The notes under the pieces are model-generated. The model saw only the letters and a program-made list of their open reading frames with translations. It did no database searches and was not told the origin of the DNA. Source: Austropuccinia psidii (lineage: Eukaryota; Basidiomycota; Pucciniomycetes; Pucciniales; Sphaerophragmiaceae). From it: a DNA stretch of 64,000 bases. The DNA lies in the NCBI GenBank assembly GCA_023105745.1, contig JALGQZ010000019.1, positions 1,736,001 through 1,800,000 of the forward strand, written 5' to 3'. Below are positions 22,949 through 63,270 of the stretch, piece by piece (within the stretch, counting starts at the first letter, position 1; each line of letters opens with the position of its first letter). The position numbers and the translations under genes were made by a program.

Positions 22949-22978
22949 CCATGTACGCTGGCACGCCATTGTACATGG
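22949..22978. promoter_or_regulatory. 24-bp TGT...ACA dyad between divergent genes
   Basis: The 24-bp core 22952-22975 reads TGTACGCTGGCA then CGCCATTGTACA, with 9 of 12 positions symmetric. Outside it CCATGTAC / GTACATGG form perfect 8-bp outer arms. It lies 365 bp upstream of the transposase ATG (-) and 574 bp upstream of the accessory gene ATG (+), so it could serve both. It belongs to the dyad family also seen at 53477, 53617, 58492 and 60368. Confidence 0.55.
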
Positions 22979-23548
22979 CTTAAACCTTATTACAGACATA
23001 ACGATATAACTCTATTACATAAGGGGTTGGAGTGCAGCTAAAGTCTTGGTATTTGGTTTGAGTGCAGCAGGCTTTTAATTGGTTGGAATGTGATTTGGAT
23101 TTTCTCGCCTTTCTTGAAAAGGTGATGTCTCTTTTGTGGGTAAATCCTTCATGAATATACCCCTTTACAGATGTACAATGCTGTGGAATTTCAATGCATA
23201 TATTGGCAGTTTGGATAATTCACAAAATGTGACAATGGGGAGGCGGAAATGTTACCAAAGATGATTACTTATGGATGATGGGTCCCCTTTGAGATCAAGG
23301 AAATATTACATTATATGATGGTAGGCCGTGCCGGGTGGTTTCCTATAAAAGCGGAGGAGCTCAAGAGGAGGCAGGGAGGATTCTCCTAAAAAGAGGCTTA
23401 TTGGACTTTCACGCAACACTTAGTTCCAACTATTCATAGAATTTCTCTATTCTAAATTTGAAAAGATTTCATCTCATATCACTCTATTTTATCATAATAC
23501 TGTGGTGTTTTATCTAGTTAAAAATATTACTGTACTTTTTTGGCCCTT

Positions 23549-24951
23549 ATGTCATCTTTCAAGTCACATAAATCCCGTTCAGGTTCTGTTCATGACTCAG
23601 ATAGTGAATCTAGCATAGAATATGTTCAAACACAGTCACCATTGAGTCCCAACATTCCTCTCACAACCCCTATCGCATCCTCAATGAATGTATCAGGTCT
23701 TAACATTGATGTGGGCAATCCAAAGGCTCCAACTTCAAGCACTTGGTCGATCCCAAATATTTCCGTCACTCCAATTCCCCCAAATCCCACTAATACACAA
23801 ATGCATGTGTCTCAGGGGCCAGAAGGCACACCTCAAATCTCATCACACGCTAATCCCCAATCAAAATTTCCACGTGAGTTCCTCCTTAATCCCGGTCGGA
23901 ATCCAGTCCCATCCCAGGATCCCTTTGGCCAAAGTAAACAGCCAACCCTCAATATTCCATCAGGATCTCAGGTTCATGTGGGTGATGAAAGGCGCGTGGA
24001 TGGGGGGCGACGAAAAAGACCATTGGAGAATGTAACTTGGAGTGGTCTGTTGGAGGGAAATCTAGGATTGACGCTTCATCAAAGTAAGTCATTTTAATTT
24101 CGGAGTATAACCTTTTTCACCATTTGATATGTTTGTTTCATGGGTTAGATATGGCACCTAAAGGCAAGTCAGTCTGATCTCAGGAGCCAATTGAAGATTG
24201 TGAGTGACCAATCTTCATTAATTTTTTGATGTGTTAACTAATGATGTGCGTGGCAGGTGATGAACTTTATGCATCTTCACCTCTGGTCCATAAAGAGAAA
24301 GTCACTGGACGTCATCATCCATATGCCTCCAAACCAAGAACATCTCATGCCAGCTCATCAAGAGAAAAAATGGTGGATGATGAGGATGAGAACATGTCTC
24401 CAACTCAAATGGAAACAAATGAGGAACCAAGGAGTGACAATTTCACGGCGCATGAGCATGGCACTCAGTCAAATAATGAGTTCACCCATCCTCAAATGCC
24501 CCTTGCTCAGAGTATGCTTGAACAATCCGAGGGCAGACAGCAAAGGAACCAGGCTCGTAAAGCTCACAATGTGGCAAAACGTGCAAGCCAGAAGGAGCAA
24601 CAAAAATGGCTGAAAGCAGAAATTCTAGAGAATGTCCATGGAATGAGATCAGCAGTACATGCACATTGCCTGTTCCTACTTAAAGTTAGGAAAGTTAGGG
24701 ATAAGGATTTTTCCTCACTACCAGCACCACCAAGCACAGAAGAGCGTGAAATTGCAATTCAAGTGGCTGGTCATCTCGGATATGTCCCCAAGGATGTTTT
24801 CAATGAGCCATCAACACAGGTTCAGTCTCAGGGCTTCCAAAGCTACTGCGAAAATGAGCTCCACAAGTTAGGACTAAAGCGATTCACTTGGGACTGGGAG
24901 AGCTCATGGCAACATCCGTTCAATGAGCTGATGTCTATGGTGTTTTACCGT
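23549..24951 (+). pseudogene. Accessory gene of unknown function, 5' part
   Basis: Three exons can be chained by phase: 23549-24083, 24149-24199 and 24257-24951 (GTAAGT and GTGAGT donors, TTAG and GCAG acceptors). The N-terminal 180 residues are low-complexity, rich in Ser, Pro and Thr, ending in a basic patch GGRRKRP. Exon 2 carries an in-frame TGA (24175-24177). Exon 3 is hydrophilic, with a probable coiled segment (RNQARKAHNVAKRASQKEQ) and a conserved-looking C-terminal block (RFTWDWESSWQHPFNELM). It is cut after FYR by a gypsy LTR; the frame resumes at 40182. I recognise no domain. I start at the ATG at 23549, not an upstream TTG. Confidence 0.6.
24948..24951 (+). repeat. Target-site duplication of gypsy element 1, left copy
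   Basis: CCGT precedes the 5' LTR and CCAT (40178-40181) follows the 3' LTR, one mismatch in four. Removing the element and one copy rejoins the accessory gene exon in frame (FYR then TFRLAL). Confidence 0.65.
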
Positions 24952-27564
24952 TGTGGTATTCCATACCATTAGTACCAGTTTCAAGCTTACCAATAAAACA
25001 AAAGAAAAAAATGATAATAAAACAAACTACGCAAAACATTTTTACACATTACAACTACAGATTTCAAACAGAAATATACAATACGCAGCCTCAAGATCTT
25101 ATTAAAACAGTATAGTATCAAAGGATATATCCACCTTATCGCATCATCAATAACAAATTACGTCATTAAAGGTAGTTAATCTAAATAAAGGTATATGAAA
25201 ATAGACCAAAGCATCAGAAGCTGTATTTTCCCCACCTTGATTCAATTTAAAGAAGAAATACCTCAAGGCTATGCATAAAATTTCAATATATTTTCCAAGA
25301 ACAAATGCTTCCTTAGTAATAATAACACACATCAAACTTGATAGAAATGATACAATACTAAAATAAAACCACCAGCATAATTCTCTCAGAACATATGTAA
25401 AAAATAGAAACAAAAAGACTTTCTCCGCCTTCAAGAAAACATCACCAGCCAAATTATCTCAAAGACATCACATGATTTTGATAAGAAACAGAAACACCAG
25501 CATAATTTTCTCATATACATCATATGACTAGAAGACAGTTCAATTGTCAGGAGCTGTATTTTCTCCACTTTCTTGGCAAAAATAAAATCTCACCAGCCAA
25601 ATTATCTCAAAGACATCACATGATTTTGATAAGGAAAAGAACCACCAGCATAATTCTCTCATAACATACGTAAAAAATAGAAACAAAAATACTTTCCCCA
25701 CCTTCAAGAAAACATCACCAGCCATATTATCTCAATGACCTCACTTTCTTGGCAAAAAAGAAAATCTTACCAGCAAAATTATCTCAAATACATCACATGA
25801 TTTTGATAAGAAAAAGCACCACCAGCATAATTCTCTCAGAAAATACGTAACAAAGTCACCAAAAATGTAAGTGTCACCAGCAAAATTATCTCAAAGACAT
25901 CACATGATTTTGATAAGAAACAGAAACACCAGCATAATTTTCTCATATATATCATATGACTAGAAGACAGTTCAATTGTCAGGAGCTGTATTTTCTCCAC
26001 TTTCTTGGCAAAAATAAAATCTCACCAGCCAAATTTTCTCAAAGACATCACATGATTTTGATAAGGAAAAGAACCACCAGCATAATTCTCTCATAACATA
26101 CGTAAAAAATAGAAACAAAAATACTTTCCCCACCTTCAAGAAAACATCACCAGCCATATTATCTCAATGACCTCACTTTCTTGGCAAAAAAGAAAATCTT
26201 ACCAGCAAAATTATCTCAAATACATCACATGATTTTGATAAGAAAAAGAACCACCAGCATAATTCTCTCAGAAAATACGTAACAAAGTCACCAAAAATGT
26301 AAGTGTCACCAGCAAAATTATCTCAAAGACATCACATGATTTTGATAAGAAACAGAAACACCAGCATAATTTTCTCATATATATCATATGACTAGAAGAC
26401 AGTTCAATTGTCAGGAGCTGTATTTTCTCCACTTTCTTGGCAAAAAAGAAAATCTCACCAGCCAAATTATCTCAAATACATCACATGATTTTGATAAGAA
26501 AAAGCACCACCAGCATAATTCTCTCAGAAAATACGTAACAAAGTCACCAAAAATGAAAGTGTCACCAGCAAAATTATCTCAAATACATCACATGATTTTG
26601 ATAAGAAAAAGCACCACCAGCATAATTCTCTCAGCAAACACGCTGCTACACCAAAACTACATGTCTCACTAGCTAAAACCTCTCAGCTATGATTTTTTCT
26701 AAGTACCCTATTTTGAGAAGCTCTATGGAGGCCCAAAAGCTATAAATAGAGGTCCTCTCTCCCTCATTTTTCCCATCATCATGGAACAAGTTCCCACTAT
26801 CCAGGATCATAACCATCCCTGAACTAGCAGGATATCTAGAATAGTAGTAGTGTTTTAGTAGTGAAAAGCTCAGTAGCCTTGCTCAGTAGCTTAGTATTAG
26901 TGAAGAATAGTAGTATAACCATAGTAAAAGCTCAGTAGCCTTGCTCAGTAGCTTAGTATTAGTGAAGACTAGTAGTATTAACGTAGTAAAAAGCTCAGTA
27001 GCCTTGCTCAGTGGCTTAGTATTATTAAAAAAAAAAAGTAGTAGTGATATAAAACCCAGTATTAAAAAAAAATCCTAAAAGAATCAAATCCAGTAGTCTT
27101 ATTATTAGTACTCATATCACAAAAAAAAATCATTATAATCAACCTAAAACCAAAAAAAAAATATATATTCTTATCATTCTTATTAAAAAAAACAAAAAAA
27201 AAATATTCTTATTAGTTTCATTAAAATAACAGAAACCCAAAACATATATATATATATATATTATCATCACTTTTATTAAAATAAAGTAAAAAAATCTAGT
27301 GTTTATTTTATCAGAAATTTTAGATCAGAATTTTTACTGTAGTGTTATTGATAGGTCTGATTTAGAGACTGCTGATAAGTCTTCTCTATCTGTTAAAGCC
27401 ACAAATCTTATTTTATTTTGTGATTCTCTGTAGGCTGACTATTCAGTATTATTTAGAGGGGCAGCTAATACACCTTAGCACCCATGGTTATTGGACAATT
27501 CTGAAATTCAAAACAGACTTACCAATAATTTCCCCCTCAAGGTACTGCCTTATTTCATCCCACA
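24952..27564 (+). repeat. 5' LTR of gypsy element 1 (2613 bp)
   Basis: It starts TGTGGTATTCC and ends CCCACA, giving TGTGG/CCACA termini. The first half is built of tandem variants of a module containing ACCAGCATAATT, TCTCA and ACATCACATGATTTTGATAAG. An extra 432-bp copy of this block (near-identical stretches at 25540-25725 and 25972-26157) makes this LTR longer than its partner. The second half has GCTCAGTAGCCTTGCTCAGT tandem repeats (26870-27015) and A-rich runs. The short frames inside are products of the repeats, not genes. Confidence 0.93.
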
Positions 27565-27640
27565 CCAAAAGGAGTTCCCACATCTGGTGTCCCAACAGTG
27601 GCCAACAACAACTTCAACCATCAATAATCCGTCAATTATC

Positions 27641-27671
<31 letters not shown>

Positions 27672-27772
27672 CAAATTTAGTCCATATAAAAAAAAAAGCC
27701 TTTTATCAATAAAAAATTTCAAGCACCTATCAAGTCAATCTGGAATCAGAAAAACCACAAAGCTCTAAATCA
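27565..27772 (+). other. Leader of gypsy element 1 with possible primer site
   Basis: This sequence lies between the 5' LTR and gag. TGGTGTCCCAACAGTGG at about 27585-27601 begins with TGG, as tRNA-type primer binding sites do, but it lies some 20 nt from the LTR end and I could not match it to a particular tRNA. A long A tract follows at about 27640-27668. Confidence 0.35.
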
Positions 27773-30700
27773 TTGTCACCATCAAGTGCTTCAACAAAAT
27801 CATTTCATTATTATTATCCAAAAAGAGGAGAAACACCACCTGGAGAAGAATCACCTATAGATTATAGTATACCAGTTGGTACACCAAGAACTAAGAAGAA
27901 AGATCAAAAGATAGTTACAGAATATTTTCAGAAATTACTCAAGGAACTATTTGAAATTAAAAAGAAAAGTGAAAAAGAGAAAATCAACAAAGAATATATC
28001 AATATGGATTCAGCATCATCATCAAAGATACCACACAATCCAGATGAATCCAAAGAAGAAATAATAAATGAAGAGACTATGCAAGGACAAGAAGATATTT
28101 CTGATGTAGAAAGACTTCATCAAAAAATGTTGGAAATGCAACAAGAATTAATTGAACTCCTTAAAAAAGAAGGGAAAAGGAAAGAGTCAAGTTTTACCGC
28201 AGAAAACAGCCCAATGGAAGAAACTACGAGCATGCCAAGAATCTTTAGACAAGAAGGGTCACCATCACCATTTTCAAGGCCTATGGCCTCATCAACTCCA
28301 TTCACTTCACAAAGACCAAATACTCTACCAAAGCGGGTTAATATTCATGCACAGGCTTCAAGCCCATTGCAACAAGAAATCCCACGAAACAATACACCCA
28401 TTGTCAAGATCAGACCAAAGGATTATAATTTATGGTTTGATGGAAAGGAAGTGGAAAGATTTATTAAAAGAGTAGAAAATATAGCAGAAATTGAAGGAGC
28501 AAGTGGAAGGGATATAGCAAGACAGATATCCTTTTGGACTAAAGATCAAGAAATTAGCTACCATATTGAAGGAATGCCTGGATATGAAACTGGCGATTGG
28601 GAGCAATTAAAATTGGATATGAAGAGGAGTTGGGGAACAGTGTCACCTGAAAGAAGATACAAGCTGTCCTCAATTACTCAATTATTTACAAAGATTCAAC
28701 AAGAAGGAGGAATTAGAAATATGACCCAATATAAAAAGTTCATTGGTGAATATGAATCCATTATTAATTATCTCAGAAGGTACCAATATATACAAGGAGA
28801 TATCAATCACAATCAAGAAATTTTGGCCAGTCTTTCCTCAAGTGTTCAAGAGTCTATTTACAAAGAAATGATTAAAGATAAGGCCATGGTGCAAGCCTTG
28901 GATGGTGGTTATATTATTCCAAGATTGGAAATCTTAAAGTTATATATTGAACAAGATTTAGAAGCCAAAGTCTTAATTCAACAGAAGGAATTTTCACAAC
29001 CAAAGTCACAAGAGAAGAAAGCTAGGTTTGAAGAGGAAAGCTGGGAAGAAGTCTTAAAGCAAATGAAATATCTTACCCAAAAAAATTCAAAATCCTCAGC
29101 CGCAAGGGCATCAATCAAAGGATACTGGGAAGGAATCAGTTAAGCAAGTATTGAATCAGCTCAAACACCTTTCAGAAGTAGTTGAATCTCCAAATAAAAT
29201 ACAAGCAGGCAATAATCAAGATCAGAAAGTTACACAAAACTCACAGCCACTCAGGCCAAGATATCCTTTACTACCCATATCTTCTGGTTATCAACCATAT
29301 GTTCCAGCACAAATGGCTCCAAGACAGCTACTGAAGTGTTATTACTGCTTAGAAGAAGGACATTCCGCAATAAGATGTAATCACCTCACAGAAGACTTGG
29401 AGAAAAGAATTGTCTTGAAGCGTGGAGGAACATATCTTTTTCCAAATTTTCAAAGAGTACCCACAGAAGGCCCTAAATCTGGAAAAGAATTAGTTAGACA
29501 TTTTGCCAAAGAGCAGGAGGATTTTACAAAGAAAATGATGGAACAATCAAATCCACCCCAAAAGAAGCAAGAGACAACAGTAATTGAGGAAAGCAAAGAA
29601 GAGAAGGCAACTGCTATAGCTCAAATAGAAGAATGGGGAAACTGGAAACCTCCTCAAATGTCACCAGCAAATGAAAATATTCAAATAAATGTTGGGCTTA
29701 GACAGACAAGGCAAAGAGCTTCAAGACAGGAAACTCAAAGTCAAACCCAGCAAGAGGATAAAAATGAAACACACAAACCCTTTAAAAAGAAGATACCAGG
29801 TGCCTACCACAAGGAAGATGAGGCAGAAGAAGAAATAAGAGTTCTAATTCCAACAAAATACAAGAAAACACAAGAAGGAAAGGAAGTAAATAATGATATT
29901 GAAATCATTTCCAAGGAAAAGAATAAGGAGGTACTTAGACAGGATTCACAAAAGATGGAAATAAAAAACAAGGTAAAATCTACACCCAATAACCCAAAGA
30001 TAATAATTGAACATGTGATGAAGAGAATACTTGAACAAAAGATAAATCTTACTCTTGAAGAAATATTATCAATGTCACCAACCTTTATTGATAAACTACA
30101 AAATTTAACTACCCAGGAAAAAGAAGTAATAAAATCAGTCAATACGTCAAATATTCAAGAAAGACTACTTTCAGTAAAGCTACGGGACTATGATACCCCA
30201 AGATTACATTATGCATGCCCACTTGGATTTATGGAAGTATTTATTGGAAGAGAAGAATATCCTACAATGGCATTGGTGGATACTGGATCAGAAATTAATA
30301 TAATACCAGAGGAAATTGCAATTCAAGCCTCACTTACAAGTAGAAAGCTCAATATGAATCTCAGAGGAATTGGTGGACATACCACATCTTTGGTTGGACT
30401 CTCAGAATTTACACCAATTACTATGATAACAGGAGAAGAAAAAGAAATTCATTTATTCATAGCAAAAGGAGCTGTACACACCATACTTGGAAGACCATTT
30501 TTAGCAGATAATAATGTTAAATTGGAATTTTCACACAAGCAAGGGGAGATATTTAGTTATCCAGAGCAAGATGGACGTCGATTATGTTTACCAATATGTA
30601 ACCCTCAAGCTATGGGCTGGCAAATTTCTCCACCAAGAGGTATGGAGCTTTGTGCATCTTCAGAGATCGGAAAATGGTCAATACATGGAGCAGAATCATC

Positions 30701-32246
30701 CAAAAGAAAAGAAACCGAGGAAACAGAAAGTCAATCTTCAACAATAGTGAAGACAGTATTTCTTGGACCAAACAAAATACCCTTCTCAGCTATTTTTGAT
30801 GCAAAAAATGATTTGAATGTAATAACTCAGGAAATAGCCCTAAAAGCAGAATTGAAAATCGGCCCTTACACATCAAAATCAACAGATAACTTTTTGAAGC
30901 CAATTGGTCAAATTAAAAATCTTGAAGTCACTTTTGAAGGTGAAGAGAAAACCTACCTGGACTTCTTAGTATTTGAAAATTTCAACCAGATAATAGATGA
31001 AGAAAAGTCAAGCATATTATCTTCATCTAAAGAAAGTATTCCACCTCAAACTGAAACAAAATCTAAAGGGAAGGATCCAGAAGAGGATGAATTGAAGGTA
31101 GAAGATAGTGAAGCAATAGAAAAAATAAAAATGGAACTGAAGAAGATGAGAAGAAATTTGGACATGGCCATAGAAGACCCAGAGAAATGGCTAGCACTTG
31201 AGCTAAGTGGTATGAATGAAGAAGATAAAGTAGAAAGCCCACAGAAGAAATTTAAAATGGATCTGAAGCCACCTGAAGCAAATTCCTCAGGAATTGCAGA
31301 AGATTATTCAAATTTATTTCAGGAGAAAGCTTGGTACATTAGTGATACTGAAAAAATAAAAAATGACATAATCAATCCATTGGCAAAAAGAAAATTTGAA
31401 GAATTGGAAAAGGAAAGTGCCATAATTACTGAAGACAAAATGGATCAAGTTTGGGATAGAAATATTCAAAAGAGGATCGATAAAAAAATGGAAACAGCAG
31501 AATCAGAAGATGACTTGAAGTTATACCAACAAAATAATGAAGATTTGGAAGATAAATATAAGCAAGGAAGAATATTTGAAGATCTAGAAGAAGGAGAGTT
31601 ATCAGAAAATACACAAAGGCTAGCTGGACTTAGCATTCTAGAAGAATTTAATCATGCCTATGATCAAATATTCTGCTTTTCAAGCGCAACTGATCTATTT
31701 AATCAAAATAAAGGAATTACATCTGAATTACCAAATGACTCCCAGAATCAAAATGGCATACAGGAAGACATACCAGAATATGAAGGACTGGAAGATTACA
31801 TAATACTTCCAATAATAACATTTAAGGAACTGTATGATTATGAGCTAGATTTACCAATAATTCAAACCAAATATATTTCAGAACTACCTGGATCAAATCT
31901 TACAAATGTTGATTTTCTGGAATTACTAACCACTATTGGAATCAAAGGAAATTTAAGGAATCCTTACTGGAAGAAGCCTTATGGATATTATCAAATGACA
32001 ATAGAAGGACTGTATCACAAAATGTTATGGGCTCAAGAAGATTTGAATCTAGATGGTTTGGAAATCTTGGGAGGAACTCTTTGCTGGTGTGATGTTGGGT
32101 ACATGTTTATTCATGAAGTCAAAGGTTTTGTTTCTGAATGGAAAGGAAATACACAAAGAAAACAACGCAACAAGATCTTTGGAGAAATATTGAAGGACAT
32201 ATGTCTTTCAGTAATTCACAACAGAAGGTTGAATATTTCTCAATAA
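27773..32246 (+). CDS. Gag-protease polyprotein of gypsy element 1, split by a frameshift
   Basis: Two frames (27773-29143 and 29151-32246) together make about 1490 codons. The first holds the Gag capsid-like part, with a SPER segment and a C-terminal helix-rich region. The second has a canonical CX2CX4HX4C zinc knuckle (CYYCLEEGHSAIRC, near 29336) and a retropepsin site ALVDTGSEINIIP (near 30275), then a long Lys/Glu-rich tail. The second frame continues open upstream of 29151 with a sensible reading (SKDTGKESVKQVLNQL). The frames therefore overlap, and the break traces to a run of seven A at 29079-29085, where six would keep one frame. There is no in-frame ATG before residue 78 (28004), so the true start is unclear. 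Confidence 0.85.
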
Positions 32247-32397
32247 CAACTGAAGTAATCCAATTTCAATCTCCAATTAAAAAAAAAAAAAACAAAAAAA
32301 AACCACCATAAAAAATAGCAAAAATAATAAAAAAAAATAACCTAAAAAAAAAAAAAAAAAAAAAAAAAGAGAATTTTTTTCATATCTGTATCAGTAT

Positions 32398-32700
32398 CAG
32401 GGCAGTGACCTCCTGCCTTATCAAAGAGGAATTTCAAATAATTAAAAAACATAAAAAAAAATCTTTTTTCAACATTCTTATAATTCAGGGCAGTGACCTC
32501 CTGCCTTATCAAAGAGGAATTTCAAATAATTAAAAAACATAAAAAAAAATCTTTTTTCAACATTCTTATAATTCAGGGCAGTGACCTCCTGCCTTATCAA
32601 AGAGGAATTTCAAATAATTAAAAAACATAAAAAAAAATCTTTTTTCAACATTCCCATAATTCAGGGCAGTGACCTCCTGCCTTATCAAAGAGGAATTTCA
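32398..32700 (+). repeat. 88-bp tandem repeat, about 3.5 copies
   Basis: Units begin CAGGGCAGTGACCTCCTGCC at 32398, 32486, 32574 and 32662 (partial). The first three units are almost identical. They lie in the spacer of gypsy element 1. Confidence 0.95.
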
Positions 32701-33004
32701 ATTTTTTCAATTTTTTTTTCAAGTATCTTATCACTCAAGGCTATAAATCTTTATTCAAGAAAGGACTTCAAACTCAACATTTTCCAAGAGATTATTTTAA
32801 ATGTACAAGTATCATGATTTTATTTAAAAAAACAGGGGTGGTTATCTGTTCTTATGCCACCTCATATCAAAAATGGCACAAGTTTGGGGAAGTGTGGGCC
32901 CATAGGCCTTTATTAATGTTATTTCTCTTTTTTTTCAAAAAAAAAACAAATGAAAGAATGGTGTGCAGATACAGCAAAAGAAGATACATATAGCTCAAAA
33001 TGTC

Positions 33005-33292: not shown

Positions 33293-33600
33293 CACCTCAA
33301 TATAGAAAATAATTCAACTCACCAAAAGACTACCCTGAGGTATACTGGATAACATTAGCCCAATATCTATTGGTTTAGCCACTCTTCGACGTACTCCCAT
33401 ACATCCACCTCAGAAATTCAAATTGAACACAGTAATCATAGATATGAAAGAGGGTGTGGGCTCCCCAAACATAGCCAGAATATCATTCAATTAGTCCTAA
33501 CAGATCACCATAACTCAACAGATACTAGGCCATCAGAACAGAGCACCCCCCACAGAGTGATGAACATGATGCCAGCATGATTGTAGTTTGACGACACTGC

Positions 33601-33674: not shown

Positions 33675-33742
33675 TTTCAAAATATAACATCACTCCTCAA
33701 ATTGAAAACTCATTCAACATCGCTCATCAATTTAATCACTCT

Positions 33743-33798: not shown

Positions 33799-33834
<36 letters not shown>

Positions 33835-53109: not shown

Positions 53110-53474
53110 GATGGCTATTTTAAATTATTTGGCGACAGTTGGAAATTATATGATTGGGAGGGGTTATCTAAACGGAATGAAGAGAAATAGGCGCAGATGG
53201 GGAACTTATATGAGAGGCAGCAATGGGGTGAAGGGGGGATGGCCTGTGGTTACATGCATGGTCTTGATGGGGATGGGCCTCTTGGGCTCAAAATTTTCAT
53301 ATCCGATTTGGGGCATATATCAAGGCAAGGTGGCCAAAATGTGGGTGCACCGATATGACTGCTGGATCTGCAGCAAGGTACAAAACCTTTGGTGGAACAA
53401 CGTTGACATTAGCATATCCGAAATTGGGTGGGTTGTAGCAACTTATTGTGGAGGGCATATCAGAGGCATGCAGT

Positions 53475-53502
53475 CATGTTCGCTGGTGTGACAGCGAACA
53501 TG
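53475..53502. promoter_or_regulatory. 24-bp TGT...ACA dyad upstream of the SNF2 gene
   Basis: Core 53477-53500 with perfect 9-bp arms TGTTCGCTG / CAGCGAACA around GTGTGA, extended to 11-bp arms by flanking CA/TG. It lies 368 bp upstream of the SNF2 ATG at 53109. The core triplets are CGC-N10-GCG. Confidence 0.6.
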
Positions 53503-53616
53503 GATGCATATATATCTTCCCCAGGTTAATTGTTGCACAGGGACCTACTGGGCAATGTTGGCCGTTTCAAAGGGCAATCTCACTGTGGGGATGTTTGTGT
53601 GTGGGCGGGTGAGATA

Positions 53617-53640
53617 TGTTCGGTGGCATGCCACCGAACA
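53617..53640. promoter_or_regulatory. Perfect 24-bp palindrome, CGG-N10-CCG type
   Basis: TGTTCGGTGGCA followed by its exact reverse complement (12-bp arms, no spacer). It contains an inverted CGG/CCG pair separated by 10 bp, the geometry bound by some Zn2Cys6 factors. It lies 508 bp upstream of the SNF2 ATG and is the best copy of the dyad family in the window. Confidence 0.65.
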
Positions 53641-54828
53641 TGACTTTGGTTTTGCGTGAAGTTTTTTGATGACTGATTCCAACTAGGCTTCAGGGGGGAA
53701 AGTGTGGCATGATCAAACGGGGCACCGACCGTGAGGCATGATCCACATCTACATTCACCCCTATTGCGTTTGAGGAGGCTACTAATCCCCCGAGATTGGG
53801 ATCACGGTCTTTGCCTCACGCGTGTACAAAACTCCGGAGAAAGAGGCCACCCACCCAAGGGAATTTCTGGCTGCAAGCCAGGTGCCACAACTTGCGCGGG
53901 GCGTGTGAGAACGTGAAGAAAATTACCCGCGGTGGGAGATACCCACGCAAACATAACCAGCCTCAGAAATCATAGGCTGGGATTATTCTAATGTGAATGA
54001 GGCTGAAGCAAATCCACACTGATTGGCATCAGGTTTCCACGCGTGAGGAGGTGAGCGTCTGCAGTAAAGCTGACCACCCGACCAAGAAACTAGCCGGTCG
54101 GAACACTGGCAGTAAAATGTCTTCCAGGCATGTGAAAGCTGCCTGTGTATGACCCGTTGGGGGGTGCGTATGAAAGCGTGTGGCTGCCCAACAATGAGCA
54201 CGCGCAATGAACAAGCAGGGCCAGTCATTGTTGGCCCCGACAATGGCACCAGAGTGAATCCACTGTTTGTGTATTACCCAAATAATAAGTCATCCTATTA
54301 TGAACCACTTTCATTAACTCGGATTACACCCGCGTCTATGCCATTGTTGGGCAGAGCTCTCCAAAAAGGTGCACCAAAGGGATGCAGTTGAGATATATGA
54401 CTCAATGGCTTGACGTGATTTTCATGTTACATTGCTGAACAGCTTTTGCTCTGCCCTGCAGCATACATTTACAAAGGTGTACTGTGTACTACAGTGTTGG
54501 CTGTACAGATTAGGAAGTTGTAATACTACTTGAGCCTGCATGCACCTTCCGATCGTTTGCATATACGTAGCTCATGTGCCACATGCTCAGCATTGCATTT
54601 CACCCGATTTGCACACGCAAGCTGAGCATGTCATGGTCAAAAGCACCGTGTGAAAGTGCTCAGTAAAGCCATGGAATGAACTTTTTTTGCAATAGTTCAT
54701 TGGAAGGCTCAGTTTGGAGCACTTCACCAAAGCGTGTGAAATGCTGCACCTGGCTGAAATGTCACCCGATGCTGTGCCAAATGCTCAGATTGTGGGCATA
54801 CAAAAACGACTGAGCAATGGCTCAGCAT
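53641..54828. other. Gene-free stretch with inverted repeat
   Basis: No supportable gene. ACATGCTCAGC (54581-54591) and GCTGAGCATGT (54621-54631) form a perfect 11-bp inverted repeat with a 29-nt loop. TGAGCA/TGCTCA words recur through 54400-55570. Confidence 0.5.
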
Positions 54829-55572
54829 GGTGCATTTCATATTGCTATATCACTTGTTCAATTACTGTGCAATTAAAATGTTCAGCCACTGAGCATTTCA
54901 ATTATGACCCAAAAGCAAACCTGAGCAATGGGTCGAGGCAAGCTCACGCTGTATTCACTTGCCTTACAGCCCCCCCTTTGTTCAAAGACTATCACCAGGC
55001 CATACGGCCGGTGATCTTGCCGCGGTCACTTGTGACCCAATGCACCGGGTGCATTTCTGCATGGGTCACTTGTGCATTGCACCCACAATGCACATTCAAC
55101 AAGGGCCTCACGACCACCCTCCCGGGTGATCGGGTGGCTATTTAAAGAAACAAAGGGGATTTGACTCAGCTTGACAATTCAATAAATTGCAATACTCAGC
55201 GGTGCATTTGATATTGTTATATCAATTGTTCAATTACTGTGCAATTAAAATGTTCAGCCACTGAGCATTTCAATTATGACCCGAAAGCAAACCTGAGCAA
55301 TGGGTCGAGGCAAGCTCACGCTGTATTCACTTGTCTTACAGCCCCCCCTTTGTTCAAAGACTATCACCAGGCCATACGGCCGGTGATCTTGCCGCGGTCA
55401 CTTGTGACCAAATGCACCGGGTGCATTTCTGCATGGGTCACTTGTGCATTGCACGTTGAATGCACATTCAACAAGGGCCTCATGACCACCCTCTTGGGTG
55501 ATCGGGTGGCTATTTAAGTAAACAAAGGGGATTTGACTCAGCTTGACAATTCAATAAATTGCAATACTCAGC
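54829..55572 (+). repeat. 372-bp tandem duplication upstream of the Zn2Cys6 gene, with dyads and TATA-like sites
   Basis: Two head-to-tail copies: 54829-55200 and 55201-55572. Each carries ATCACC-A-GGCC / GGCC-GGTGAT (54991-55014), GGTCAC-TT-GTGACC (55024-55037), AATGCACC-G-GGTGCATT (55039-55055) and a 24-bp TGTGCATTG...CAATGCACA dyad (55071-55094). The last is weakened to 8-bp arms in copy 2. Each copy ends with CTATTTAA, a TATA-like box (about 55138 and 55510). This looks like a duplicated promoter. Open frames here merely repeat between copies and I do not call them genes. Confidence 0.7.
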
Positions 55573-55718
55573 CAGACCCCCATTGTTCTTCTGCCTCACG
55601 CGACCATTTCACTTCTCAGTTGCAGCATTCGCTGAGACTCAGGTTCAATTTTGCCCACACGCCTTGAAGCTGAGACTTTTGCGGGTGCTGCAACTGCTGA
55701 GATCGTCTCAGCTTCACC

Positions 55719-55726
55719 ATGGTATA
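55719..55726 (+). promoter_or_regulatory. TATA-like box of the Zn2Cys6 gene
   Basis: GGTATAAAAG is a strong TATA match. It precedes a pyrimidine-rich leader and a probable 5' UTR intron whose branch-like CTAAC (about 56129) and TTTTTAG end directly before the ATG at 56153. Confidence 0.45.
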
Positions 55727-56152
55727 AAAGACCATCTTCACACAACACGCACTTCACTTTCTCTCTCACCCGCTCCACTTCGTTCAACCTCACCCGTGTT
55801 TGTCCTTCTTGTGCATATTCCCCTTTGTCTTCCTGCCTTTCTATTTTTGTCTTTCGCACCCCACTAAACCCACTTCCCTTCCTTTTGCCTGTTTGTTTAT
55901 TCTTCTGATCCGTTCAGAACCTCACTTCTATCCACCTCGTGTGTTACCTCTTTTTTAAACTTTTGTCAACATTACATACCGATATTAATACTTATTTTTC
56001 TTCATGACTCTTTTCCAGACTTTTAAAAACTTCCAACTAGAGAATTCTTATTTTGTTTCGGTTTTAAATTCATAATTCATCGTACATCTTCATTTTCTTT
56101 CTTGATTGTTTACTTTGTATGCAGTTACTAACCTCAATTGTTTTGTTTTTAG

Positions 56153-57515
56153 ATGTTGTGCACTTTATGCACTAAGCGGGGTATCCCCTGCATTCGTTCC
56201 TCGACGACGAACGACGCTTGTGATGCTTGCCGACAAGCACACAAGAAATGTTCTTTCATTGTGCGCCCCTTCCAACCACGAGGCCAGAGGAGTTCCCGCC
56301 CAAGACGCCCTTGCAAGGACTCCTTTGTGGTCGGCGATGATGAAACCATTTCCGAGCATGAATGGACGCCGGGCCCCCAAACAGGCCAACAGGAACGATT
56401 CCGGACGATCAGCCCTGTCCCCTCCAGTATCAATTTGTCCACTCCCCCTCCTAGGCCACCATCCGATGGTCACTTCACTCCTCGACCGGAGCGAAGTGAT
56501 TATCCGGCCGATGAAGGATGGCGATGGCGAGAGGACATTCGAGCTTGGGCTGATCGTCACCATGTCTTGTCACCGATGGGATTCAAACGCCAAAGTAAGT
56601 TTTCTTTCTCCTCCTTATCTCATTTCTCTTCACGCAATAATACTGACTTTTTTCCATCACTCATAGAACAAAACCCCCCGAATCCCCCCCAACATGACTC
56701 TCCCGTTCCTAGTTTGCCTCGCAAGCAAACCCCCCGGCAAACCACTCCAGGCCCGAGTGGCACCCGATAGTCTGAGGAATTATTCCACGGTAAGCAGCCA
56801 AAGTTTCATTTCATTTTCACTTTCACTTTCGAGTCGAGTGAACTGACTCTTACTCCTTTTTTAGAACCCTCCTGAACTGAAGAGCCACCTATTCCTGGCC
56901 CAAGTCCATCGTCCCAACCACCTGAGGACAATACGACTTGTGAGCCAGAACCTGAGGTGGCTCCTACGCAATCCATGGAGGAACCTTATGGTAAGTCACC
57001 CCTTCTTTCTCTTTGATCCATATCCACTTTTCCTCATTTTTTCTTTGACCGTCTCCAGATCGTCCCGCCACTCCTCGCTCGATCATCATCATCGACGATA
57101 CGCCCGTCGGATCCCCCCATGCCCCTCCCCCTTCTTCTTCACTGACTCCACCATCTTCCCCTCCTCTCCTACCCCGGTTCCTTCCCAGGATCTCCCTCCC
57201 ATTGCCCCCAAGAACCCAACAACCTCCTCCCCCCCGGTGCCAAGCTCTTCTCATTCCCACAATGACGCTCGCCAGGAATTCACCGACCTGCGACCGACCC
57301 TAATGATTCCTCGAGCCATCATCCACAAATCGATCAACCGAATCTTGTTGGAGCATCGCCGCTTGCTCAACATGATTCCTTTCGTGGATGCAACTCATTG
57401 AAATGAGATGCACCGGGAATTCCGGGAGGAACTAAACTCCCTCCTTGCCCAGGCGCAGGAGGCTTATCCAAAGGAGGACATCACCGGGATAGTCTCCAAA
57501 TTCCTCAAAAAATAA
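56153..57515 (+). pseudogene. Zn2Cys6 (Gal4-type) DNA-binding protein, with nonsense mutations
   Basis: The protein begins MLCTLCTKRGIPC and its six cysteines follow C-X2-C-X6-C-X9-C-X2-C-X6-C (residues 3 to 33), the spacing of a fungal Zn(II)2Cys6 cluster, with a basic HKKC end and basic flank. Four exons chain in phase: 56153-56594, 56667-56789, 56865-56990, and 57059-57515. The rest is Pro/Ser-rich and disordered. The last 50 residues (NEMHREFREELNSLL, ending SKFLKK) look helical. In-frame stops: TAG 56768-56770, TGA 56873-56875 and TGA 57399-57401, plus a frameshift in the proline-rich part of exon 4. A role as regulator of the element's own genes is inferred from the CGG-N10-CCG dyads nearby. 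Alternatively it is an ordinary captured host factor. Confidence 0.65.
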
Positions 57516-57916
57516 TCTCATTATTTCCACTTTTTATCATTTTTAATACTTTCTTTTAAATAAATTATCATTTGTATTCAATTATTATTATGTTCAAATT
57601 CTATTACATTCTTCGTTCACGTAAAAATTACTTATTTCCTCCTTAGAGAAAAACCCTGATTGCGTGAGAATTATTTTTGTAAGTGCCCCACCAAGAGTTT
57701 GAGTGAGTATTTGTTTTCGTGAACCTCTTTTTCCCAAAATGCGCCAATAGTTGCCATTACCGTCTCCTATATTTTCTTCTTCCATGGTTTAGAGCCATAT
57801 CCATTCTTAACTGTAAAAAAGCGGGAGCTTCCCGCATGTGAGCAATCCACTCCAGATTTGTGAAACATGGCCTTTCCTATGGTCACACGCTATTAATCTT
57901 ACTCATGTATTGAATT
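57516..57916. other. Gene-free stretch with GCGGGA/TCCCGC hairpin
   Basis: AT-rich sequence without a gene. GCGGGA-GCT-TCCCGC lies at 57821-57835. A similar GCGGGAAGT/ACTTCCCGC pair occurs at 60267-60294. Confidence 0.5.
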
Positions 57917-58480
57917 ATTTAAATCGTCTGGAACCTTCACAAGCATAAGCATTGGCGTGTGACTTGTCGGGAGGCTGCACAGGCATAAGGATTGGCGTGT
58001 GAATTATCGGGATCCTGCACAGGCGTAAGAATATGTCAGCATTGTTGGCAACCTTCCCAAGCGTAAGGATTGGCGTGTGAACCGTCGCAAGCCTGTACAG
58101 GCATAAGGAATTTTTAGCATTTTTGGGACCCTTCACAAGCATAAGGATTGGCGTGTGAAGTTTTGTGAGCCTGCACAGGCGTAAGAATTAGCGTGTGAAT
58201 TCTCGGGATCCTGCACAGGCCAAGGAATTTTCAGCATTGTGGGGAACCTTCACAAGCGTAAGGATTGGTGTGTGAATCGCTGGAAGCCTGTACAGGCATA
58301 AGGAATTTTTAGCATTTTTGGGAACATTCACAAGCGTCAGGATTGGTGTGTAAATTTTCTGGAGCCTGCACAGAAGTAAGGATTGGCGTGTGTAGCGTCG
58401 GCACCCCGCATAGGCGTAAGGAACTTTTAGCGTTGTCGAAACCTGCACAAGCATAAGGATTTGCGTGTGAAGCATTGGCA
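57917..58480 (+). repeat. Tandem array with GCGTAAGGATTGGCGTGTGA units
   Basis: About ten imperfect units of 50-65 bp, each containing CCTGCACAGG- or CTTCACAAG-type words followed by GCGTAAGGAT(T) and often GGCGTGTGAA. It ends directly before the dyad at 58492. It shares the core AAGCGTAAGGAT in the same orientation with the array at 63262-63680. Minus-strand frames across it are products of the repeat. Confidence 0.85.
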
Positions 58481-58491
58481 TCCTGGACAGA

Positions 58492-58515
58492 TGTATGATG
58501 GCATGCCACCGTACA
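58492..58515. promoter_or_regulatory. 24-bp TGT...ACA dyad beside the tandem array
   Basis: TGTATGATGGCA then TGCCACCGTACA, 10 of 12 positions symmetric. The right half-site is intact (CCG), and the left CGG is replaced by TGA. It lies 3' of the TET/JBP gene and abuts the array at 57917-58480. Confidence 0.55.
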
Positions 58516-58615
58516 TAATCCACTTCACCCCTTTTTCATGTGAGACACCCCATCTCCCGCACTCGAATCCATCCAATCCTGGTGTATATTGTCCTCTGCC
58601 TTACCCCACCATTAC

Positions 58616-59968
58616 TTACCCAACCCACATGCAAATCTCCTCATTCTTTGAATCGGCATGAGATTGTATTACCATCCCTGATTTGATAGCCCGCTCTCTC
58701 GCCAATCTCATAATAGCCATGGTTTTTGCTAACCTGCTTGAGCATTGTGCGGACATACCCATTAGTGTTGTGCTTTCGTTGTCCTGTGCTGGATCAGTAT
58801 AATGAACAAATGTACTACTGGCCCACACTACCTGAATGAGCCCATGACATGCGGATAGATCAATCCAAAAATGCTCATTTGGGAAAATCAATTTTCCCCT
58901 GTACACTGCTTTGACACATCTCTTTGAATTTGCCCGGTCCGCTTATCAGCTTGAAACCACCATCCCGAAGCATACAGCGATGCATCCTTATCAACATGAG
59001 GTGCGTTTTTGAATCCATTCATGGTGAAAGTGAGTGCGGAAGCGAACTCGAATGCACCCTGATTTGCCGGAATATTGCCTTCATAGTTGACTTGATCAAA
59101 AGACGGAACCCCCAATGAATTGTAGAAATTTTGAATCTTCTCAAATAAATTATCCCCAACATATTGTAAGGATTGACCTAGAATGCAACCCACTGAGCTA
59201 AGATTGAAACCTCGGTTCTGCCATTCATCTTTTGCGTTTTCAATTTTCCCGACACTTCCATACAGACCAAATTGTTCATTCTTGGTGCTGCATTTGCGCC
59301 ACCCAATTGCAAACATAAATCCCTCCAGTAATGCTCCATTGGTTGCAATCGGGTCGGTGAATCTCTTTTCGCGAAATAAGAATTGTGATAATTCATCCCA
59401 TTGATTGACCTCGACTTCACTAATTGTTGTGAATGGTCGGAATTCGACAAGGGCAATGAGTAATCCGGTTGAAGAGAAAATTGCCACACGGCCAAAGTGA
59501 ATGCGTTTGATCTGATTGACATCCACAACCCTCCGAATTTCACTTGGGGTGATATTTGCTGATACTGGCATTGATATTTGTGCTGTTGGGCGAGAGGAGG
59601 AAAACAACCTATTCATTTGGCTCTTTTTGCGCTCATTTGTCTTTTGGGATCTGCTACTATTCCCGAGTGGTTGCGGGATCACTATGTGTTGAAGCACACA
59701 AGATATCAGATACTGCCAAGGAGCTTTCTTTGGCACACATCCTTTGACTTCCCTGTTGGAGCCCACATGACATTGGCACAATCTGAACCGACTAAAGCCA
59801 ATGTTCTTCCGTGGGGCCCAATGAGGGTGCCACATAAATGTGGAAGCATATATATATATCTATATATATACACTGAGATTAAGCGAGCAACTCACACTTT
59901 CCTTCCTCAGCCCGACGCTTTCTGGCGAGTTCCCTTTTACGCTCTTTTCCTTTTTTCGTGAATGGCAT
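58616..59968 (-). pseudogene. TET/JBP-type 2OG-Fe(II) dioxygenase, single-base frameshift
   Basis: The protein resembles the TET-like dioxygenases expanded in basidiomycetes, which oxidise 5-methylpyrimidines in DNA. A probable first exon from the ATG at 59968 encodes a very basic leader (KKGKERKRELARKRRAEEG) before a GTGAGT donor. The main frame 59835-58888 contains RVAIFSSTGLLIALVEFRPF, NQGAFEFASALTFTMNGF and the iron-binding H-x-D in NAPHVDKDAS. The C-terminal half is in another frame (58906-58616): LIFPNEHFWIDLS, IQVVWASSTFVHYTDPA (distal iron His) and QCSSRLAKTM (basic 2OG contact). The two frames meet at ACAGGGGAAAA, where one missing G breaks the reading. All catalytic residues I expect are present, so the lesion is slight and could be an assembly error. 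Dyads flank the gene on both sides (58492, 60368). Confidence 0.78.
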
Positions 59969-60266
59969 GCTTTCAGCAGAAAATGAAATGAAACCGAATG
60001 ATTACTGATTTATTAATATCACCTAAATTGAATTGCGGTTGATGAATCTTTTTTGATTGCGGCTAAAGAGAAAGATCACACCTGACCTTGGCAAATTCGC
60101 GATCTCAAATACCTGAACCTGAAAATTGCAGTGGATAGTGCATTATTCAATTTGACATATTGATGTTCCCATGCAATCACTTTCCAATCCAACCATTTGG
60201 AATGCGCATCCCTAGCTATCCTAGTCCTCTTGAAAGACACAGGAACATTTGGCCTATTAGGGGCTG

Positions 60267-60294
60267 GCGGGAAGTGATAAACGCGACTTCCCGC
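60267..60294. promoter_or_regulatory. Inverted GCGGGAAGT/ACTTCCCGC repeat upstream of TET/JBP gene
   Basis: Perfect 9-bp arms separated by 10 bp that contain ACGCG. TTCCCGC/GCGGGAA resembles E2F-type sites and ACGCG the MCB core of fungal S-phase promoters. It lies about 300 bp upstream of the ATG at 59968. The function is inference. Confidence 0.35.
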
Positions 60295-60367
60295 ATTTCC
60301 CCCGCGTGTGCTACTCGCGGGCACAACGCCTGACTCAGCTTGCGTCTTGTCGGAGTCTTTGAAATGA

Positions 60368-60391
60368 TGTACGGAGGCATGCCGCTGTACA
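60368..60391. promoter_or_regulatory. 24-bp TGT...ACA dyad upstream of TET/JBP gene
   Basis: TGTACGGAGGCA then TGCCGCTGTACA, 10 of 12 positions symmetric. The left CGG is intact, and the right triplet is CTG instead of CCG. It lies 400 bp upstream of the TET/JBP ATG and just 3' of the unknown gene ending at 60510. Confidence 0.6.
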
Positions 60392-60509
60392 ATTACTATT
60401 GGTACTCAGACTGTGGCATCCAGGGAGTAGTAGGATAGGAAGTCATGATTATTAAATTCATAAATCACTTTGCAAAATTAAATTACAATATATCTAGTAC
60501 AAAGCTAAT

Positions 60510-62745
60510 CTAAAACGGGTCAATCCTGGTTGTGAGTTTTGCTGACCTGGGTACCGTCAAGGTGACCTCATCACTTGAACCAAGACCACGTTTCGCCACC
60601 CAGGCATCACCAAAGTCTAATACTAAGCATTGTGCAAATTCAAATCTAAGAGGTACAGTGGGGTTAAAAGACTCTGATGAGAAGAAGCTTTTATTCAGTA
60701 AATCACATATATACTTATTAGTATGTAGCCACACTGGCTCCACTAGATTTTTACCCTCTGAAAGTTTTGCGGAAATGTCAATTAGTGATAAAGCCCCTTT
60801 AACTGAGCTTGTTCTCCAGTCATCTGAGCATACCATCAAACCACAAACCCCCGCCGCACAGAATGCCGCTAATATACCATAGCAAATTCGATTTATTCCG
60901 AGATTCTTGTGACACGCCAAAAGATCTTTGATGGCCTCATTTTTTTTTGAGTTCGTGAGTTTGCCTTTGATGCCATTAACTTTGACCTTTGTATGTGCAC
61001 GTACCATGTTGTACGCAATCATCAAATGGATAACTGTATCCATTAGATCCTCCAGGTTCTTGTGTGGCTTCGTGGATATCTCATTGTCAGCCCCGCCACC
61101 TTCAATGCTGAGTTGGGTTGCACGTTGCTTCAATTTACTCAAGCAGGAGGCAAGGTATTCAACTGCTCCCCATTCGGGTCCAAGAGGATCGGTCGAATTT
61201 GATGTTGGTGCAACATATGGTTTGGGTGCAACCACATCGTATGAGACTAAACTAATGGATTCAAACATAACATTTGCCCAAAAATGTTTAACTGGATTGG
61301 CGGGGTAAAGAAGGCTCTGAACCATTTTGAAGAAGGAGTGTTCAGATTTTGGGAGATTCTCTGGAGGTTTAGCTGATTCCTTCATCAATTTGAGATTCCA
61401 AATGTTGTGATCAAAAAACGCTTCTGTTTCGGTTGGCTTAAAAAAATCTAACCCTGTATATTGCAATTTATATCACCAGTCAACAGCCAATAAACATGTA
61501 TCATGCACAAAGATAAAACTCACCTGCCATCTCAAGGTCCTCCAGCCAGGCCGACATTTTAAGCTCTCGGTTACTGATCACCTTAATACCAACAGGCAGG
61601 AATGTATGAGCATCTTTTGTTGGTAAATTGTCCCATCAATTTTTGTAAATACTATTGATATTATCAAGCCCCCTTTTCCATGATTGTTGAGTAATATTGG
61701 AATGATAATTCAAAATGCCTGCAAACTCTTCCATGCGGGATAAAAATATCCCTTGAAAATTAGCAGAGGATGACACTTCGGGCTCAGGGTCAGGAACTAT
61801 ATCAGTCATATCTCATCCCATTGTATCATGTTTAATTGTTTCCCTTTCTTGAAAGGCTTGAATATTCCAAGGAGAGGCGGGAGGGGTTGCATCATGCATT
61901 GTTTCATTGGGTATTGGGGGACTTTCAGTATGTGGAGCTTCATCATGGATTGTTTCATTGAGTATTGGGGGGGTTCAGTATGCGGAGGTTGATTATCAAT
62001 ATGGTCCCCTTCAACATTGATAATTTCATGACCTTGATCGCGAGAATCGTTTGCGGCTTCAAAGGTACAGCGTTTTTTGTTTGTTTTTTTGGTCGCATGT
62101 ATATTTGGTCTTTTTCCTAATCCTTTGCCTGGAAATCCAATGACAACTCGAGATCCTTCAGGTAGAGATTCTCCCACCTCCACACCTGCCCATATATTGT
62201 AAGCAGCTATTGATATCAATTTTGTTTTGAATTAGTAATGGACTTACGGTTCAAATCCATTTTGAGCAGGCTCATGGCTTCAGCAATCTTTTGACGCACA
62301 TAATCAGGAATTTTACTATCATTTTGGATTTTTTCGAGCCTTGGGATTGTTTGAGCAATGTTGGAGACAAATTGTTCCTTGGATATAATTTCCACCTCCC
62401 CACTGAAAATAACATCATCTTGCCCATCATCTTCTGTCGGTGCACAAGGTTCAACAGTCTTTTCCTTCTCATAAGTTTCAAAATTCGGTTTCTGAGAGCT
62501 TGGAAGTTGACCTGAAATAAAGGCTATGACACAATATCAGGTTTTGAGAGATTAGAAATACTCAAGATGGATGTATACTCACATTCTGGAAGAACTGGTG
62601 GATCTTGATTATCTTCATGTGACTGGCTCTCTGCTTCAATGCCTAATTCACGACTACTGGCCATATCAGATATTTCACTTCCACTCTCTGGGGCTGAAGT
62701 TGGTTGTTCATTAAATTCCTTTGAATTTCCTGGGGTTTGGGCCAT
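60510..62745 (-). pseudogene. Unknown conserved-looking gene next to TET/JBP, with nonsense mutations
   Basis: Exons chain by phase on the minus strand: 62745-62583 (acidic, Ser/Pro-rich N-terminus), about 62512-62249 (helical: FVSNIAQTIPRLEKIQND), then from 62185 (EGSRVVIGFPGKGLGKRP, basic KKTNKKR). A further coding stretch follows to about 61527 (ISNRELKMSAWLEDLEMA). After a GTGAGT intron comes a long last exon 61466-60510 of about 318 codons (FFKMVQSLLYP, LMIAYNMVRAHTKVKVNG, LGINRICYGILAAFCAAG, VTLTVPRSAKL). In-frame TGA codons occur at 61815-61813 and 61638-61636, and a frameshift lies in a C run near 61970. I recognise no domain. The large last exon is globular in composition, and two short near-repeats (NETMHDA-like) precede it. 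Confidence 0.6.
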
Positions 62746-63240
62746 CGCGGAGGTAGTTTAGTAAGCAAATAGATGGTGACGAGTTGATTGATAACTTGTT
62801 TGAAAATTTTGAATAAAAAGATCCAAATTGAAGAAAATAGGTGCAAGTAAAATAATCTCATTTGCAAAATGCGATTTGTCGGGCAATTGAAGGAGGCGAT
62901 GTTTTGCAAATTATTTCATATCATGCAAATGAAATCACTTCCCTGTGAGACATTGAATAAAGTTGACTAGTGAGAAACCTACTAAAGTCAACTTTTGAAC
63001 TATTCAACGCTCATGAGGTAAGGACTAAGCAAAGTGTTCCATTTGAATGATATGATATAAAATGGTTTTGTCGGCGAAACAGGAGACACAATTCTCTTGT
63101 CTTAAATAGTCCACTTATTAGGTTTTAATTTGTGAGTCTCATGATTTAAACCCTAACCACAACATTGTGAATATACTGACCAATTTCCCCTTAGGTCCTG
63201 TTGGCAGAGAAGGCCACTCAGCATATTTTGGCGATTGCCA
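62746..63240. other. Gene-free upstream region
   Basis: This stretch holds the presumed promoter of the gene starting at 62745. No TATA box is obvious and no other gene is supported. Confidence 0.5.
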
Positions 63241-63241
63241 A

Positions 63242-63270
63242 GCCACCGTACACTATGGATGTAGTACGGA
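63242..63270. promoter_or_regulatory. Everted half-sites of the dyad family
   Basis: A full right half-site GCCACCGTACA (63243-63253) is followed by TGTAGTACGG, giving CCGTAC...GTACGG outward-facing arms over 24 bp (63247-63270). It lies about 500 bp upstream of the ATG at 62745 and abuts the tandem array at 63262, mirroring the dyad next to the array at 57917-58480. Confidence 0.4.

What the first reader, a model, noticed from the sequence alone, without database searches (positions are those of the whole stretch)
22949..63270. Family of 24-bp dyads, best copy CGG-N10-CCG, placed 365-530 bp upstream of the element's genes
Dyads of identical length with TGT...ACA ends occur at 22952, 53477, 53617, 58492 and 60368, with relatives at 55071 and 63247. 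Their distances to the minus-strand start codons are 365 (transposase), 368 and 508 (SNF2), 400 (TET/JBP) and about 500 (unknown gene). The half-site is TGTWCGGTGGCA. CGG-N10-CCG inverted repeats are classic targets of Zn2Cys6 factors, and a Zn2Cys6 protein is encoded at 56153. This suggests a transposon-encoded regulator controlling its own regulon. The alternatives are recombination sites or old terminal repeats.
Basis: partly seen in the sequence, partly recalled or inferred. Interest (0 to 1): 0.88.

Follow-up and report, generated by a model that had tools for sequence, protein, structure and literature searches.

The report
Repeated 24-bp palindromes inside rust transposons
A very large jumping gene of a rust fungus carries the same 24-letter palindrome at six fixed places between its genes, probably docking sites for a paired DNA-binding protein with which the element controls itself.

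Summary
The dyads are real and beyond chance. The window (Austropuccinia psidii, inferred from protein matches) holds one ~20.5-kb EnSpm/CACTA-type transposon, 18785-64058: 46-bp inverted termini CACCAGGGC..GCCCTGGTG, 3-bp duplication CCT, split by two nested insertions. It encodes a tnp2/Plavaka-like transposase, SNF2, TET/JBP, a zinc-cluster-like protein and two unknown proteins. It has six dyad places. 55071 is not a member. Pattern searches of the genome gave 8472 and 4240 places, reversed control 0. All places whose context or letters I saw belong to this family or to a second repeat family that carries the dyads in a tandem array of variable length. CGG-N10-CCG is not the core: 7 of 18 half-sites have CGG, 17 have TGTWC. 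Between related copies the dyads are not significantly better conserved than their flanks. Best reading: sites of a dimeric, probably element-encoded protein, working like TNPA sites of CACTA or VANC sites of VANDAL elements. Which protein binds is untested. New variant of a known kind.

The parts
18785..64000 (.). EnSpm/CACTA-type transposon; right terminus lies 58 bp beyond the window (L034:58)
   Evidence: 46-bp inverted termini; CCT outside both ends
24952..40176 (.). nested insertion with long direct terminal repeats
   Evidence: direct repeats; absent from other copies
41692..51224 (.). second nested insertion with direct terminal repeats
   Evidence: direct repeats; absent from other copies
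20740..22587 (-). transposase, tnp2/Plavaka-like
   Evidence: PF02992 E 1.2e-14, PF18759 E 1.3e-6
22952..22975 (.). dyad D1; 365 bp from transposase start, 574 bp from divergent plus-strand start
   Evidence: family form
23549..24951 (+). first part of an unknown plus-strand gene (ORF-X), approximate, continues beyond the nested insertion
   Evidence: ORFs; no Pfam match
51482..53109 (-). SNF2-type helicase, broken into pieces in the window
   Evidence: PF00176 E 1.2e-30 and 9.6e-12; longer frames in L021
53477..53500 (.). dyad D2; 368 bp from SNF2 start
53617..53640 (.). dyad D3, perfect palindrome; 508 bp from SNF2 start
56153..57514 (+). zinc-cluster-like gene with introns, C-x2-C-x6-C-x9-C-x2-C-x6-C; end approximate
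57922..58471 (.). tandem array beside D4
58492..58515 (.). dyad D4, between convergent gene ends
58888..59968 (-). TET/JBP dioxygenase, two exons
   Evidence: PF20515 E 2.3e-35; start inferred
60368..60391 (.). dyad D5; 400 bp from TET/JBP start
60510..62745 (-). unknown gene ORF-Y, several exons
   Evidence: weak CDC24-type match below cut-off; start inferred
62963..62991 (-). second short block shared with family B, TTGACT..AGTCAA ends
   Evidence: E 2.9e-6, reversed control best 0.39
63229..63252 (.). dyad D6, left half lost in the window copy
63265..63680 (+). right subterminal tandem array with units TGTCGGGAG

Best explanation
The dyads are fixed cis-acting sites of an EnSpm/CACTA-type transposon: two-fold sites, half-site about TGTWCG-N-TGGCA, for a protein that binds as a dimer. 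The protein is most likely encoded by the element (the zinc-cluster-like protein first, then the unknown proteins or the transposase). It would mark the intergenic control regions of each copy, adjusting transcription and perhaps helping transposition complexes or keeping these regions unsilenced. A second repeat family with the same sites in tandem would use the same protein in trans. Shown: the sites, their fixed places, their presence in two families that are otherwise unalignable except for one more short block, and no other context among the places seen. Inferred: that a protein binds, that it is a dimer, which one it is, and the effect.
For: Six non-homologous places of one element share one palindrome. 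8472 places within 3 mismatches and 4240 with the symmetric skeleton, reversed control 0 each. Near-constant spacing in copies, for example C1:4396047, 4402281, 4402415 and 4407363. Context seen: 15 of 15 exact TTCG loci are D3; of 20 slices at exact TACG sites 13 are D4-type and 7 family B; 42 of 42 places printed with letters are D1-D4 forms (by letters only). Family B: tandem arrays, three dyads in L018 and five in the copy at C8:51155 kb, and a second block shared with the element near the dyads. The element encodes a zinc-cluster-like protein.
Against: No binding data. Dyads are not better conserved than flanks between L017 and L016 (63 of 72 against 945 of 1166, p 0.10) or window and L016 (63 of 72 against 939 of 1157, p 0.11); D3 is intact beside only 34 of 98 intact left flanks on contig 1. 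Among close copies D5 and D6 are no better conserved than flanks (n = 3 each) and D2 and D4 only slightly. D4 is not a promoter position. CGG is not invariant. Family B shows no element gene in the 6.5 kb seen, and 6 of the 42 exact TACG places were not looked at.
Confidence: 0.5

Rival explanations
1. The site belongs to a host transcription factor that the transposons exploit; the element's own zinc-cluster protein has nothing to do with it.
For: Family B shares the site without any element gene in the 6.5 kb seen. CGG, the usual Zn2Cys6 contact (recalled), is not invariant.
Against: None of the places whose context or letters I saw lay outside the two repeat families, but the whole genome could not be masked and scanned.
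Confidence: 0.25
2. The sites serve transposition (assembly of the transposase complex, as subterminal repeats do) and not gene control.
For: D4 and D6 stand beside tandem arrays and D6 is about 0.8 kb from the right end; the right array has units resembling the half-site with one base missing; D4 is not upstream of a gene.
Against: D1-D3 and D5 are many kilobases from either end of the 20.5-kb element and lie upstream of genes. The array resemblance was found after leaving out one base.
Confidence: 0.15
3. Inserted palindromic scraps of another transposon, such as joined termini of a PlavakaA element, whose termini are TGT..ACA.
For: PlavakaA termini TGT..ACA with 2-bp duplications are reported by Kojima 2025 (PMC12730594, passage).
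Against: The element's own termini are CAC..GTG with a CCT duplication. None of D1-D5 has a direct 2- or 3-bp duplication at its sides. Places are fixed between copies.
Confidence: 0.04
4. Mere leftovers of tandem or segmental duplication inside the element, with no function.
For: No excess conservation over flanks between related copies.
Against: The flanks of the six places do not match each other, symmetry is kept although the letters differ (D2, D3), and family B shares the dyad and one more short block while the rest is unalignable.
Confidence: 0.06

Closest known systems
TET+ EnSpm DNA transposons of rust fungi (Kojima 2025, PMC12730594; abstract, passages and part 1 of Results read)
   Same: CAC..GTG termini, 3-bp duplications, Plavaka-like transposase, TET/JBP gene; reported also from A. 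psidii
   Different: In what I read no dyads, SNF2 or zinc-cluster gene are mentioned; the words zinc, SNF2 and subterminal do not occur and palindrom- occurs once, about gene borders
TNPA and subterminal repeats of plant CACTA elements (PMC2613891, passages)
   Same: Element-encoded DNA-binding protein with many short sites in the element; motifs differ between families
   Different: Those sites cluster at the ends; here palindromes are spread over the element. No protein is shown to bind here
VANC anti-silencing proteins of VANDAL elements (PMC5735166, passages)
   Same: Short motif concentrated in non-coding parts of one transposon family and rare elsewhere; arrays change by tandem duplication, as in family B
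   Different: VANC binding and demethylation were shown by experiment; here the motif is a 24-bp palindrome and the element carries its own TET/JBP and SNF2 genes
Gal4/Put3-type Zn2Cys6 sites, CGG-N10/11-CCG (recalled)
   Same: Two-fold symmetric site; D3 contains CGG-N10-CCG
   Different: CGG in 7 of 18 half-sites; the outer TGTWC is the better kept part

Membership tests
EnSpm/CACTA transposon | CAC..GTG inverted termini | tested here: met
   CACCAGGGC..GCCCTGGTG, 46 bp at 91%
EnSpm/CACTA transposon | 3-bp target site duplication | tested here: met
   CCT on both sides
EnSpm/CACTA transposon | tnp2-type transposase | tested here: met
   PF02992 54.5 bits against cut-off 28.6
PlavakaA transposon | TGT..ACA termini with 2-bp duplication | tested here: not met
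   termini CAC..GTG, CCT
Zn2Cys6 target site | inverted CGG triplets at constant spacing | tested here: not met
   both halves CGG in 2 of 9 dyads
Zn2Cys6 protein | six cysteines in the family's spacing and a significant family match | tested here: inconclusive
   C-x2-C-x6-C-x9-C-x2-C-x6-C in 15 of the 120 listed relatives; Pfam 17 bits, cut-off 21; no PDB or NCBIfam match; model too poor, mean pLDDT 54
TNPA/VANC-like system | motif concentrated in non-coding parts of the element and rare elsewhere | tested here: met
   on the places sampled only; gene models are approximate
TNPA/VANC-like system | element-encoded protein binds the motif and changes expression, methylation or transposition | not testable with these tools
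   no binding, RNA or methylation data held

The most novel reading that the evidence does not exclude
The dyads are the address label of a self-targeted demethylation system: an element-encoded dimeric zinc-cluster protein with swapped cluster halves binds TGTWCG..CGWACA dyads, whose half-sites mostly carry a CpG, and brings the element's own TET/JBP and SNF2 proteins to its control regions; a second repeat family has copied the label, in tandem, to be opened in trans. That would be a fungal, enzyme-carrying counterpart of VANC anti-silencing.
Probability: 0.15. Interest if true: 0.85.

Novelty: new variant of a known kind. Interest (0 to 1): 0.5.

Why it matters
CACTA elements are reported to be second only to Ty3 elements among the transposons of this gigabase rust genome (PMC12774611, passage). 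A defined 24-bp site in thousands of places gives a concrete handle on how such elements regulate themselves under CpG methylation, and on why they keep TET/JBP genes. The idea is testable site by site on methylation and expression data.

Tried and rejected
Terminal-repeat and inserted-scrap readings: contradicted by termini and duplications. CGG triplets as the core: not borne out. 55071 as a relative: it is part of a 372-bp tandem pair. Link of family B to the transposase relic 3.9 kb away in L018: of 42 matches of that relic only L018's own lies near a family B dyad known to me; family B is an insertion with a sharp end at L018:6560. Conservation tests on copies: no significant signal. Structure of the zinc-cluster protein: too poor to search. 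IMG/VR scan for the dyad: 0. NCBIfam and PDB sequence searches: none. Other rust genomes are not held, so relatives there could not be searched.

Rows dropped: D1 had no second copy among the fetched slices; D5 and D6 rest on three rows each; the D3 rows had been chosen by an exact D3, apart from L016 and L017. In one search D4 was left out because L016 and L017 had been chosen by it.
Full report
What the window is. The 30 best protein matches of the transposase are hypothetical proteins of Austropuccinia psidii MF-1 at 66-91% identity, and the genome holding the window has 1,015,390,075 bases in 84 contigs. The species name is inferred; the genome itself is unnamed. The window is C19:1736001-1800000.

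The element. A 46-bp inverted repeat, CACCAGGGC..GCCCTGGTG, starts at 18785 and ends 58 bp beyond the window; CCT stands directly outside both ends. Two nested insertions with long direct repeats (24952-40176, 41692-51224) are missing from other copies. I fetched 20 slices of 9.9 kb: 15 around exact D3 sites (L019-L033), L016-L018 around exact TACG sites, and two beside the window. Of the 15, 14 lack both insertions (L030 also lacks 20 bp at the second junction) and L028 reaches only the second junction, where the insertion is missing too. Without the insertions the element is about 20.5 kb. It carries a transposase (PF02992, PF18759), SNF2 pieces, a Tet-like oxygenase (PF20515), a zinc-cluster-like gene below Pfam's cut-off, and two genes without a convincing family. 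By termini, duplication and transposase it is an EnSpm/CACTA element of the TET+ kind that Kojima reports from rusts including A. psidii (PMC12730594; abstract, passages and part 1 of Results seen).

The dyads. They match the consensus at 17-22 of 24; 100 simulated windows gave 14-17 at best, so D2 is not significant by this score alone but is by consensus and symmetry together (28 against at most 25 in 20 simulations). The sixth lies at 63229-63252, whole in L017 and L037 as TGTACGCCAACAAGCCACCGTACA; 2457 places match that form within two mismatches, control 0. D1 reads TGTACGCTGGCACGCCATCGTACA in other copies. The window's D1 and D4 have each lost a CpG by a C-to-T-type change; D5 may have, but its family form rests on three copies.

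Placement. D1 is 365 bp from the transposase start and 574 bp from a divergent plus-strand start; D2 and D3 are 368 and 508 bp from the SNF2 start; D5 is 400 bp from TET/JBP; the right half of D6 is 496 bp from ORF-Y (starts inferred). D4 lies between convergent ends, next to a tandem array. D6 also stands beside an array, the right subterminal one.

Genome-wide. Consensus with up to three mismatches: 8472 places, reversed control 0. Symmetric skeleton TGTNCGNTG-N6-CANCGNACA without mismatch: 4240 places, control 0; the 42 places printed with letters, the first on contig 1, are all D1-D4 forms by their letters, and in several copies D1 to D4 follow with near-constant spacing. D4 with 14 bp of flank, up to three mismatches: 2282 places. 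The exact 24 bp left of D3: 1360 places. A TET protein search scored only 126 of 6312 candidates, all at 94% or more. So most of the 8472 places can be copies of one transposon: copy number, not independent evidence. The independent evidence is that six places with unlike flanks share one palindrome, and that a second family has it.

The second family. There are 42 exact TGTACGGTGGCATGCCACCGTACA places. L016 and L017 are D4 of this element, L018 is family B. Of 20 others fetched as 241-bp slices, 13 have the D4 context (one, L042, diverged) and 7 are family B. Coordinates put 13 more in family B. In all 21 of 42 are family B, 15 of 42 D4, and 6 were not looked at. In family B the dyads stand 48-49 bp apart: three in L018, five in the copy at C8:51155 kb, the extra ones in a repeated 97-bp unit. 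Besides L018, 18 copies match L018:1-4250 at 96-97%, and 18 match the right part at 97-98% up to a sharp end at L018:6560; six more at 90-91% share that end. Only the best 40 candidates were scored. A transposase relic 3.9 kb from the dyads in L018 is not part of it.

A second shared block. Family B and the element do not align, except for the dyads and for TTGACTTTAGTnGGTTTnnCACTAGTCAA (window 62963-62991; L018:4795-4823), E 2.9e-6, best hit against the reversed element 0.39. In the element it lies between ORF-Y and D6, in family B 62 bp before the first dyad. Two short symmetric blocks kept together in otherwise unlike DNA look like a shared control module; common descent of a small segment is the alternative. 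It strengthens the reading a little; I left the odds as they were.

The motif. Over nine distinct dyads (18 half-sites: D1-D4 and D6 in family form, D5 as in the window, three of L018) TGT is invariant, TGTWC is in 17, CpG at positions 5-6 in 13, CGG in 7. The right subterminal array has units TGTCGGGAGCATG, in L037 TGTCGGAGGCATG, like the half-site with one base missing; this may be chance, as the base was left out after looking.

Against function. Between L017 and L016 dyads are no better kept than flanks (63 of 72 against 945 of 1166, p 0.10; window against L016 similar), and D3 is intact in 34 of the 98 contig-1 copies whose left flank is intact. In one search D2 and D4 are slightly above their flanks, D5 and D6 are not, and D3 was preselected. 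Most copies are probably dead, so this does not exclude function at the time of transposition, but it gives no support.

How it most likely works. Palindromes at fixed intergenic places, mostly upstream of starts, fit sites of a dimeric protein acting on the whole element. In plant CACTA elements TNPA binds subterminal repeats, is required for transposition and regulates the element (PMC2613891, passages). In VANDAL elements VANC binds short motifs in non-coding parts, causes loss of methylation, and its motifs spread in tandem repeats (PMC5735166, passages). The zinc-cluster-like protein is the natural candidate: N-terminal C-x2-C-x6-C-x9-C-x2-C-x6-C and a proline-rich middle; the 120 listed of 189 relatives are all named A. 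psidii. Its cluster looks reversed, with the basic residues in the second half; that comparison rests on recall of Gal4-type clusters. A. psidii methylates young transposons at CpG (PMC12774611, passages), and most half-sites carry a CpG, which makes a methylation-sensitive site conceivable. No call shows binding.

Literature. Seven searches listed no paper whose title or abstract start describes these dyads; one search found no paper with all its terms. Only open-licence papers are held, so this is not proof of novelty.

Noticed in passing
62963-62991; L016:9617, L017:9418, L018:4795, L058:149: A second short block, TTGACTTTAGTnGGTTTnnCACTAGTCAA, is shared by the element and family B close to the dyads.
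   Followed up: partly
56153-57514 and proteins P0121-P0240: A large A. psidii family of zinc-cluster-like proteins whose cluster halves look swapped relative to Gal4-type clusters (comparison from recall).
   Followed up: partly
L018:1-6560 and copies: Family B is a repeat of more than 6.5 kb that contains pieces of a Copia-type and probably a LINE-type element (weak RNase H match) in its near-identical copies, so these were inside before it multiplied.
   Followed up: partly
18785-18830 and right terminus: The 46-bp terminal repeat contains its own imperfect palindrome, GTCAATCG-TCGG-CGATTGAC.
   Followed up: no
54829-55572: 372-bp tandem pair upstream of the zinc-cluster gene; each unit has its own 24-bp dyad TGTGCATTGCAC..TGCACA.
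   Followed up: no
25361-26650 and 38407-39263: The two terminal repeats of the first nested insertion differ in the number of 432-bp units although the rest is nearly identical.
   Followed up: no
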